Assembly: GCA_020466095.1 (NCBI GenBank)
Contig: CM035808.1
Span: forward strand, 84,608,779-84,672,778
Direction: 5' to 3'
Source of the DNA: Chlorops oryzae
Lineage: Eukaryota; Arthropoda; Insecta; Diptera; Chloropidae
Length of the DNA: 64,000 bases
Of this stretch, positions 51,901-52,680 are shown piece after piece. The position numbers were made by a program, and so were the translations under genes. Numbering within the stretch: the first letter of the stretch is position 1; the number at the start of each line of letters is the position of its first letter. Below the pieces are notes generated by a model. That model saw only the letters and a program-made list of their open reading frames with translations. It ran no database searches and was not told the origin of the DNA.

Positions 51901-52680
51901 CCCCCAGAACTAGTGGACCAAGCAAACATAAAAAATTTCCTAAAAAACAAATCAAAAAACAGATATTCAAATGTCCCCTGTCTTGTTCACAGTAGGGTGA
52001 AACTATCTAACAGGCATAAGCATGACTACATTCACGCCAATTATGTTGATGGGTTTTTTAGAAAAAAAGAATACATTGCAACACAAGGTCCACTTAAAAA
52101 TACACTAAACGATTTTTGGCAAATGATTTGGGAACAAAACTGTGTTAATATAACCATGCTAACGAAAGTCCTTGAACATGAGCAGGAAAAATGTTACCAA
52201 TATTGGGGAAAGAGAAGAAATGACATAATTAAAACAGAAAACTTCAATGTTAAAACTTTAGACAGAATAGTGAACAGAAATAGTGTTAAATCCCAAATAG
52301 AATTGAAAAATCTGAAAACAAAACAATCAAGAATCATCAATCATTGGCAATATAGAGGTTGGCCTGATAACGGCACACCAAATACATATGCTCTACTAAA
52401 CTTCTGGTTACAGATAAAAGCACAGCAAAAAATCTCTGAAAAGAAAAATAAATATTCAAAAATGGTCATACATTGTAGCGCAGGCGTCGGCCGAACCGGC
52501 ACACTGATTGCGCTGGACATAGCCATTGACACTCTAAGAGCAGGTCTGAAATACAACATTTAAAAAATAATAAATAAAATTCGCCAAGAGCGAGCGCATG
52601 CCGTCAATTGCATCCAACACTACAACTTTTTAGTAAAAACATTGTCCATTCATTACCTGCCAACCGATAAAAATCAAGAA
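48930..52680 (+). pseudogene. pol: D1 pol: linker, RT, RNase H, integrase and fused PTP
   Basis: The 5' part is lost; similarity to D2 starts in the protease-RT linker. After frame breaks near 49220-49270 the frame is open from about 49273 to the stop at 52561. RT: WRLVVVFRKLN, FSTLDLASGYH, YLDD at 49834-49845. RNase H: TTDASNEALGAVLSQ, STIEKE, YSDHKPL, NADELSR. Integrase: HHCC zinc region (HDSPIGGH...CQLCQ), catalytic Asp at about 50998 and 51178, but the Glu position (51286, NGALVRSH) is Val where D2 has Glu, so this integrase should be inactive. GPY/F: WEGPFEII at about 51680. After about 85 linker residues the frame enters a protein tyrosine phosphatase domain (51958-52680), broken only by a TAA at 52561-52563; the same frame resumes to 52680. 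Confidence 0.92.
51958..52680 (+). other. Protein tyrosine phosphatase domain at the end of D1 Pol
   Basis: A classical PTP catalytic domain (about 240 residues, the normal length). In order: the pTyr loop NRYSNVPC..HSRVKL, DYIHANYVDG, EYIATQGPLKNTLNDFW, WEQ...ITMLTKVLE, KCYQYW, the WPD loop HWQYRGWPDNGTP (Asp at 52366), the signature HCSAGVGRTG with Cys at 52474 and Arg at 52492, and after the TAA at 52561 the IRQERAHAV...QHYNF block that corresponds to the QTxxQYxF Q-loop. The key Cys, Arg and Asp are present. Weak points: the Q-loop glutamines appear as Asn and His, and the Asp usual in the PxD of the pTyr loop is Val. Such enzymes remove phosphate from tyrosine in proteins. Activity of this copy is doubtful. 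Confidence 0.95.

What the first reader, a model, noticed from the sequence alone, without database searches (positions are those of the whole stretch)
51950..52680. A retroelement Pol fused in frame to a classical protein tyrosine phosphatase
Seen: the D1 frame that encodes RT, RNase H, integrase and GPY/F continues without a stop into a full PTP catalytic domain with NRY, WPD loop and HCSAGVGRTG. Known: errantiviruses and Ty3/gypsy Pols end at the integrase or in a chromodomain, and I know no described PTP in this position; bracoviruses of parasitoid wasps are known to carry many classical PTP genes. Inferred: the element captured a PTP, perhaps to change signalling in the cell during retrotransposition or infection.
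Basis: partly seen in the sequence, partly recalled or inferred. Interest (0 to 1): 0.97.

Follow-up and report, generated by a model that had tools for sequence, protein, structure and literature searches.

The report
Retrovirus-like element with captured tyrosine phosphatase
A group of retrovirus-like mobile elements in one animal genome carries a protein tyrosine phosphatase as the last part of its polymerase protein, with its catalytic residues kept across diverged families, and some copies also carry a SUMO-protease-like gene, so the element seems to have taken host regulatory enzymes as tools.

Summary
The finding is real. In window copy A one frame (49246-52563) runs reverse transcriptase, RNase H, integrase, GPY/F, then a classical tyrosine phosphatase (Y_phosphatase, 3e-62). 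Correction: an in-frame TAA (52561-52563) cuts off about 40 C-terminal residues here. It is no one-locus accident: a second, 75% identical element in the window enters the same domain, and 64 examined element loci of this genome fall into ten families; in 50 of them integrase and phosphatase share one open frame. Catalytic Cys, Arg and WPD Asp stand in 63 of 63 loci that reach them, although synonymous sites between families are at or near saturation. Element phosphatases form one group against the sampled cellular ones; nine public Pol relatives end 3-35 residues after GPY/F; one Pol family in this genome lacks the domain. Env and a Ulp1-like SUMO protease ORF lie downstream. Derivatives with env deleted keep the phosphatase, so I favour an intracellular role. 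Ten paper searches showed no such element. Function is inferred, not shown.

The parts
49246..50754 (+). copy A (family F3): reverse transcriptase and RNase H part of pol; gag and protease end missing or broken upstream
   Evidence: RVT_1 2.2e-31, RT_RNaseH_2 8.8e-22, RT_RNaseH 5.4e-14
50755..51783 (+). copy A: integrase (H2C2 + rve) ending in GPY/F (..PIWEGPFE..)
   Evidence: Integrase_H2C2 5e-19, rve 1.7e-17; alignment with Pol relatives that lack a PTP stops here; GPY/F read by eye
51784..51945 (+). copy A: linker between GPY/F and the phosphatase; poorly alignable with copy B
   Evidence: 23 codons aligned, 0.52 aa identity, long gaps
51946..52560 (+). copy A: classical protein tyrosine phosphatase domain, in frame with pol, through the P-loop and the helix after it
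   Evidence: Y_phosphatase 3e-62, profile 1-202 of 234; PDB relatives
52561..52563 (+). in-frame TAA that ends copy A's frame inside the phosphatase
52564..52680 (+). copy A: C-terminal tail of the phosphatase (Q-loop region), same frame, after the stop
   Evidence: the like tail is in frame in other F3 loci
55013..55507 (+). copy A: start of env with furin-like site KRTKRG
   Evidence: Baculo_F 2.4e-5, 23.6 bits, just under the 24.1 cut-off
55754..56841 (+). copy A: rest of env, cut by the insertion of copy B
   Evidence: (45% aa to the env at 1-888); no Pfam match
56842..57498 (+). copy B (family F4): 5' LTR, 657 bp, TGTTG..CAACA
   Evidence: second copy at C3:84676778-84677434, 100% over 657 bp; GAAG on both outer sides
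57503..57520 (+). copy B: primer-binding-site-like stretch after the LTR (tRNA-Ser type by recall)
   Evidence: assignment recalled, not tested
58190..60022 (+). copy B: gag frame with zinc knuckles
   Evidence: (zf-CCHC 2.4e-5)
59980..63198 (+). copy B: pol frame with aspartic protease, RT, RNase H and start of integrase; frame break near its end
   Evidence: RVP 5.5e-5, RVT_1 2.9e-35, H2C2 2.5e-19, rve 7.1e-14
63156..63998 (+). copy B: rest of integrase, GPY/F, linker and first residues of the phosphatase (from about 63879); goes on past the window as L072
   Evidence: L072; Y_phosphatase 2.8e-68 on L072

Best explanation
An env-bearing Ty3/gypsy (errantivirus-like) lineage captured a classical protein tyrosine phosphatase at the C-terminus of Pol before its families diverged, and kept it as a working enzyme. 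Shown here: the architecture, its multiplicity, conservation of the catalytic Cys, Arg and Asp, purifying selection, and a nested family without it. Inferred: the phosphatase is made as part of the Gag-Pol polyprotein, packaged in the particle, and acts inside the cell (cytoplasm or, with integrase, nucleus), removing tyrosine phosphate from host signalling or defence proteins so that the element replicates or escapes silencing. With the Ulp1-like SUMO protease ORF after env it would be a set of captured enzymes that erase host protein modifications.
For: Open integrase-PTP frame in 50 of 64 examined element loci, at least one in each of ten families. Cys, Arg and WPD Asp in 63 of 63 loci that reach those sites; the other locus is cut by a stop. 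Between families PTP pS is 0.58-0.87 and pN 0.20-0.42 in 36 pairs of 9 of the 10 families; within families pooled PTP pN/pS is 0.20-0.55 in the 9 families with pairs. Copies A and B: pol 75% in DNA, 35 PTP codons with dN 0.28 and dS beyond the method's range. One phosphatase group, support 100/99. Env-deleted derivatives keep PTP in two families. A C48 ORF is listed within 6 kb downstream of 53 of 150 listed PTP places, 0 in the wrong order or strand.
Against: No activity, expression or packaging data. The first Q-loop Gln, used by cellular PTPs in the second catalytic step (recalled), is absent in 9 of 10 families, and F3, F4 and F7 lack the second, so turnover may be slow or altered. PTP pN/pS is higher than that of integrase in 8 of 9 families. 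One Pol family does without it. Env-deleted copies could be mobilised in trans. Both window copies are broken. The examined loci were chosen with preference for long frames.
Confidence: 0.55

Rival explanations
1. Infection tool: the phosphatase is carried in enveloped particles and acts on the next cell or host at entry, as PTPs of bracoviruses and baculoviruses act in caterpillars.
For: Elements have an env with a furin-like site. Passages seen: PTPs are a large bracovirus gene family (PMC4553618); baculovirus PTP is likely of lepidopteran origin (PMC5704228) and induces host hyperactivity (PMC3856412).
Against: Derivatives with env deleted keep the PTP, in two families; the domain is part of Pol rather than a separate gene.
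Confidence: 0.2
2. Binding module: the domain sits where chromoviruses have a chromodomain (recalled) and acts mainly by binding phosphotyrosine proteins, to place the integration complex.
For: Position after GPY/F; first Q-loop Gln lost in 9 of 10 families, which by recall can favour trapping over turnover.
Against: Nucleophile Cys, P-loop Arg and WPD acid are kept in 63 of 63 loci that reach them; a mere binder would be free to lose them.
Confidence: 0.17
3. Passenger: a captured piece carried along without use.
For: One family lacks it; constraint weaker than on integrase in 8 of 9 families.
Against: Open frames and catalytic residues across ten families at or near synonymous saturation.
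Confidence: 0.05
4. Host PTP gene lying beside pol at this locus, or an assembly artefact.
For: Host PTP genes exist in the genome (L020, L021, L052, L074, L087).
Against: 150 listed matches on four chromosome-like contigs and unplaced ones; integrase precedes the PTP in every family examined, while the five host loci show no integrase upstream.
Confidence: 0.01

Closest known systems
Errantivirus / env-bearing Ty3/gypsy elements of insects
   Same: LTRs, gag-pol-env order, RT-RNase H-integrase with GPY/F, env with furin-like site, 4-bp target duplication
   Different: Pol goes on into a tyrosine phosphatase; an extra C48 protease ORF follows env
Ty3/gypsy Pol relatives P0124-P0132 (unnamed public proteins)
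   Same: 45-69% identical over the aligned RNase H-integrase part
   Different: 9 of 9 end 3-35 residues after the GPY/F alignment, no PTP
Chromoviruses
   Same: an extra domain after GPY/F on Pol (recalled)
   Different: chromodomain there, phosphatase here
PTP genes of bracoviruses and baculoviruses
   Same: virus-like agents of insects that took up host PTPs (passages of PMC4553618, PMC5704228, PMC3856412)
   Different: separate genes of DNA viruses, not fused to a retroelement Pol; kinship not tested
LTR elements with captured enzymes (bdelloid Juno/Vesta with dUTPase, GDSL esterase, DEDDy exonuclease, PMC5408684; orchid Gypsy with AlkB-type domain, PMC9289625)
   Same: capture of an enzyme by an LTR retroelement (passages)
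   Different: other enzymes, as separate ORFs or between protease and RT; 'phosphatase' occurs 0 times in PMC5408684 and once in PMC9289625, in a reference

Membership tests
Errantivirus-like env-bearing Ty3/gypsy element | RT, RNase H, integrase order with GPY/F | tested here: met
   GPY/F by eye
Errantivirus-like env-bearing Ty3/gypsy element | paired LTRs and short target duplication | tested here: met
   copy B: 657-bp LTRs 100% identical, element 11,815 bp end to end, GAAG on both sides; copy A's LTRs not located
Errantivirus-like env-bearing Ty3/gypsy element | F-like env with furin site | tested here: inconclusive
   Baculo_F 2.4e-5, 23.6 bits against a cut-off of 24.1; KRTKRG motif; three other env pieces had no Pfam match
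Errantivirus-like env-bearing Ty3/gypsy element | RT groups with named errantiviruses in a tree | not tested
   no named errantivirus sequence was fetched
Classical protein tyrosine phosphatase | Y_phosphatase domain | tested here: met
   copy A and representatives of 8 more families over the cut-off; the single F10 locus matched the profile over the cut-off (258.7 bits)
Classical protein tyrosine phosphatase | HCX5R P-loop and WPD Asp | tested here: met
   63 of 63 loci that reach them; F1 reads WAD
Classical protein tyrosine phosphatase | Q-loop with both Gln | tested here: not met
   first Gln kept only in F7; second kept in 7 of 10 families (F1, F2, F5, F6, F8, F9, F10), lost in F3, F4, F7; no family keeps both. 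A departure in the active site; the domain match itself is not in doubt
Chromovirus | chromodomain after GPY/F | tested here: not met
   Pfam finds Y_phosphatase and no chromodomain in 9 family representatives
Bracovirus or baculovirus PTP | groups with those PTPs in a tree | not tested
Ulp1/SENP (C48) protease | Peptidase_C48 domain | tested here: met
   L108 ORF 6.2e-12, 46.2 bits, cut-off 20.7; SENP5 2.8e-12

The most novel reading that the evidence does not exclude
A clade of insect-type endogenous retroviruses has become complex: it carries two captured host enzymes, a Pol-fused tyrosine phosphatase and a separate SUMO protease, that wipe phosphotyrosine and SUMO from host proteins to defeat antiviral signalling and SUMO-dependent transposon silencing (SUMO's role in piRNA-guided silencing is recalled).
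Probability: 0.3. Interest if true: 0.95.

Novelty: new variant of a known kind. Interest (0 to 1): 0.83.

Why it matters
A retroelement Pol that ends in a signalling enzyme is, as far as my ten searches reach, undescribed. If the enzyme works, an endogenous retrovirus carries phosphatase activity with its polymerase and integrase, which links transposon biology to host signalling and silencing and gives a testable handle: isolated domain assays, phosphoproteomics, and the PTP-less sister family as a natural control. The joint presence of a SUMO protease makes a counter-defence reading directly testable.

Tried and rejected
Host-gene-next-door and artefact readings were rejected by the genome-wide search and frame analysis. 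Three scans of viral contigs gave no relative; genome contigs gave 19 loci, 18 of them MAG records, with Ty3-type matches of 23-31% identity apart from two short ones of 43 and 48%. Rfam at gathering thresholds: nothing. Origin of the PTP: unresolved. PTPN9/MEG2 is the best single-domain row among the 60 PDB rows shown, for copy A (156 bits; next a receptor type J/eta chain, 150; 245 matched) and for F2 (182; next SHP-1 type, 166; 249 matched): a weak lean only, and the tree held almost only receptor PTPs. Host L052 was dropped from that tree as a very long branch. A module swap between F6 and F9 (integrase 89% aa, PTP 51%) is suggestive only: AU p 0.073. The protein searches took candidates only up to 1260 aa or 1575 aa, and many Pol-PTP frames here are about 1540-1680 aa, so full-length fusions in other species could have been missed; fragments of a close fusion should still have outranked the Pol-only rows, and none of the Pol rows in the 120 listed carries a PTP domain. 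One search scored only the 7994 candidates that shared most words. The host species is named by no tool; insect, probably dipteran, is my recall-based guess. One search's script failed at its last step (tree display) and was redone.

Full report
What was checked. Stop-to-stop frames show one frame at 49246-52563 on the + strand, 1105 aa. Pieces of it match RVT_1 (2.2e-31), RT_RNaseH_2 (8.8e-22), Integrase_H2C2 (5e-19), rve (1.7e-17) and Y_phosphatase (3e-62, profile 1-202 of 234). The translation holds KNRY, DYIHA, YIATQGPL, DFWQMIWE, WPD and HCSAGVGRTG. The frame ends at TAA 52561-52563; the C-terminal tail of the phosphatase stands in the same frame after it. So the fusion is real, but in this copy the open frame lacks the last part of the domain.

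Second copy in the window. Gag (58190-60022), pol (59980-63198) and a further frame (63156-63998) form another element whose Pol also passes GPY/F and enters a PTP at the window's edge. Its pol is 75% identical in DNA to copy A over 2618 aligned positions. RT-RNase H: aa identity 0.79, dN 0.16, dS beyond the method's range; integrase: aa identity 0.81 and 0.76 before and after the frame break, dN 0.11 and 0.15, dS 2.80 and 1.12; first 35 PTP codons: aa identity 0.60, dN 0.28, dS beyond range. Copy B sits in copy A's env: 5' LTR 56842-57498, TGTTG..CAACA. Its second LTR lies at C3:84676778-84677434, 100% over 657 bp, so the element spans C3:84665620-84677434, 11,815 bp, and is young; GAAG stands on both sides. 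Copy B has a frame break in integrase near 63156-63198.

Genome-wide. The window lies in an unnamed eukaryotic assembly of 442,144,510 bases in 1044 contigs, at C3:84608779-84672778. Y_phosphatase gives 151 matches with 150 of 596 candidates scored, so counts are lower bounds; 150 places were listed and parsed. They include host genes: L020 reads as a Lar-type receptor PTP with two domains, and L021, L052, L074 and L087 also have no integrase match upstream. I examined 68 listed places (8 loci given plus 60 that I chose, with preference for long frames) and window copy A: 69 in all, 5 host and 64 element loci. The choice is biased to open frames.

Families. Single linkage at 85% PTP aa identity gives ten families of 16, 12, 8, 6, 6, 5, 4, 3, 3 and 1 loci; copy A is in F3, copy B in F4. 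In 50 of 64 loci one open frame runs from at least 300 aa upstream of the PTP start through the P-loop, with at least one locus in every family; 48 of 64 run 225 or more residues into the PTP. Within the nine families with pairs, PTP DNA is 90.5-100% identical, medians 91.6-99.0, so several were active recently.

Conservation. The WPD Asp, P-loop Cys and P-loop Arg are present in 63 of 63 element loci that reach them; one locus is cut before them by a stop. KNRY Tyr is Y in 58 and F in 6 (all of F5). The first Q-loop Gln is kept only in F7; the second is kept in F1, F2, F5, F6, F8, F9 and F10 and lost in F3, F4 and F7. From recall, the first Gln places the water for the second step of catalysis, so these enzymes may be slow. 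Between nine family representatives (36 pairs; F10 not included) PTP pS is 0.58-0.87 and pN 0.20-0.42; integrase pN is 0.06-0.18. Within families pooled PTP pN/pS is 0.20-0.55 and integrase 0.10-0.37; PTP is the higher in 8 of 9. Pairs share ancestry and include decayed copies, so the ratios are rough; purifying selection is still clear, and weaker on the PTP than on integrase.

Trees. Element PTPs lie on one side of a branch with support 100/99 against 33 receptor-PTP domains and 4 host domains (L052 dropped; the non-element sample is almost all receptor type). In the integrase tree 26 PTP-bearing rows of nine families (F10 absent) are one side against 9 Pol relatives without PTP, support 87/91. 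Those nine (P0124-P0132) end 3-35 residues after the GPY/F alignment. Of 97 scored integrase matches in the genome (of 7122 candidates), 51 have a listed PTP within 1.5 kb downstream. Four of the six (L102, L103, L104, L106) are near-identical copies of a Pol without PTP, with a frame of 1325 aa in three. In a shorter integrase tree this family falls among PTP-bearing ones (with F3 and F8, 82/77); holding the 18 PTP-bearing rows together is rejected at AU p 0.013, a test made after seeing the tree. The simplest reading is one gain and at least one loss. F6 and F9 have integrases 89% alike but PTPs 51% alike, which suggests exchange of the PTP module, though the AU test on the PTP tree gives only p 0.073.

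Downstream genes. The start of env follows the PTP in loci of F2, F4, F7 and F8. After env in copy B comes a 272-residue frame (L108:1423-2238) that matches Peptidase_C48, 6.2e-12, and SENP5, 2.8e-12: a Ulp1-like SUMO protease. It has 143 matches in the genome, 142 of 855 candidates scored. Of 150 listed PTP places, 53 have a listed C48 within 6 kb downstream on the same strand (506-4452 bp); 0 of 143 C48 places have a PTP downstream within 6 kb, and 0 PTP places have a C48 on the opposite strand in that range. In 5 of 12 F2 loci C48 begins 0.52-0.72 kb after PTP residue 200 or so, which leaves no room for env; 4 of the 12 have the env start there instead, 3 show neither. In 4 of the 7 fetched F3 loci, and in L088, L090, L091, L094 and L097 whose PTPs are closest to F3, only the last part of env is found close behind the PTP. 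So env was lost in derivatives of two families while the PTP stayed. Most other loci were read only about 0.7 kb past the PTP and say nothing on env.

How it most likely works. A C-terminal Pol domain is made at Gag-Pol level and packaged (general knowledge of retroelements, recalled). Retention after loss of env points to work inside the cell rather than at entry. My best reading is a packaged or cytosolic phosphatase acting on host signalling or defence, beside a SUMO protease; probability 0.55 for the whole statement, far higher for the architecture alone. Substrates are unknown.

Known work. The listings of ten searches of an open-access library showed no LTR element with a tyrosine phosphatase. 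I saw passages, not whole texts, of seven papers: PMC9289625, PMC5408684, PMC12992720, PMC13172572, PMC5704228, PMC3856412 and PMC4553618. The first two show that LTR elements capture enzymes (AlkB-type domain; dUTPase, GDSL esterase, DEDDy exonuclease). 'Phosphatase' occurs 0 times in the second to fourth and once in the first, in a reference. The last three tell of PTPs in baculoviruses and bracoviruses, not in retroelements. Public protein searches listed no Pol-PTP fusion among 120 rows each, with the length caps told under Tried and rejected.

Limits. One genome, unnamed host, sample biased to open copies, no expression or activity data, no non-receptor or viral PTPs in the tree, no structure model.

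Noticed in passing
L108:1423-2238 (C3:84675322-84676137): Ulp1-like C48 protease ORF after env in copy B; 143 matches in the genome, many in open frames.
   Followed up: partly
L102, L103, L104, L106: Pol family without the phosphatase that falls among PTP-bearing families: a likely loss. Listed C48 matches lie about 4 kb downstream of two of them.
   Followed up: partly
L026-L028, L030, L031; L051, L053, L054, L085, L088, L090, L091, L094, L097: Env-deleted derivatives in two families that keep PTP sequence, several with the C48 ORF behind it.
   Followed up: partly
window 27423-35488 (-): A 650-bp repeat pair, 100% identical (27423-28072, 34839-35488), flanks minus-strand gag and protease pieces related to copy B and a 43-residue integrase-like match, with no RT match between: looks like a young Pol-poor relative.
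   Followed up: no
window 53576-54329 and 9306-9748: 127-bp tandem arrays about 85-88% alike, each followed by a short ACGG/GACG microsatellite; the first sits between PTP and env of copy A. DINE-1/helentron-like by recall.
   Followed up: no
window 1-993: End of another env frame, 45% identical to copy A's env.
   Followed up: no
window 14191-14742 (+) and 17887-18396 (-): mariner-type transposase start (HTH_48) and a Pao-type piece (Peptidase_A17).
   Followed up: no
families F6 and F9: Integrase 89% but PTP 51% aa identity, a sharp change at the junction: possible exchange of the PTP module.
   Followed up: partly
C3:84677920-84678720: A C48 match (48%) with stops just behind copy B's 3' LTR, probably copy A's own C48 gene beyond the nested insertion.
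   Followed up: no
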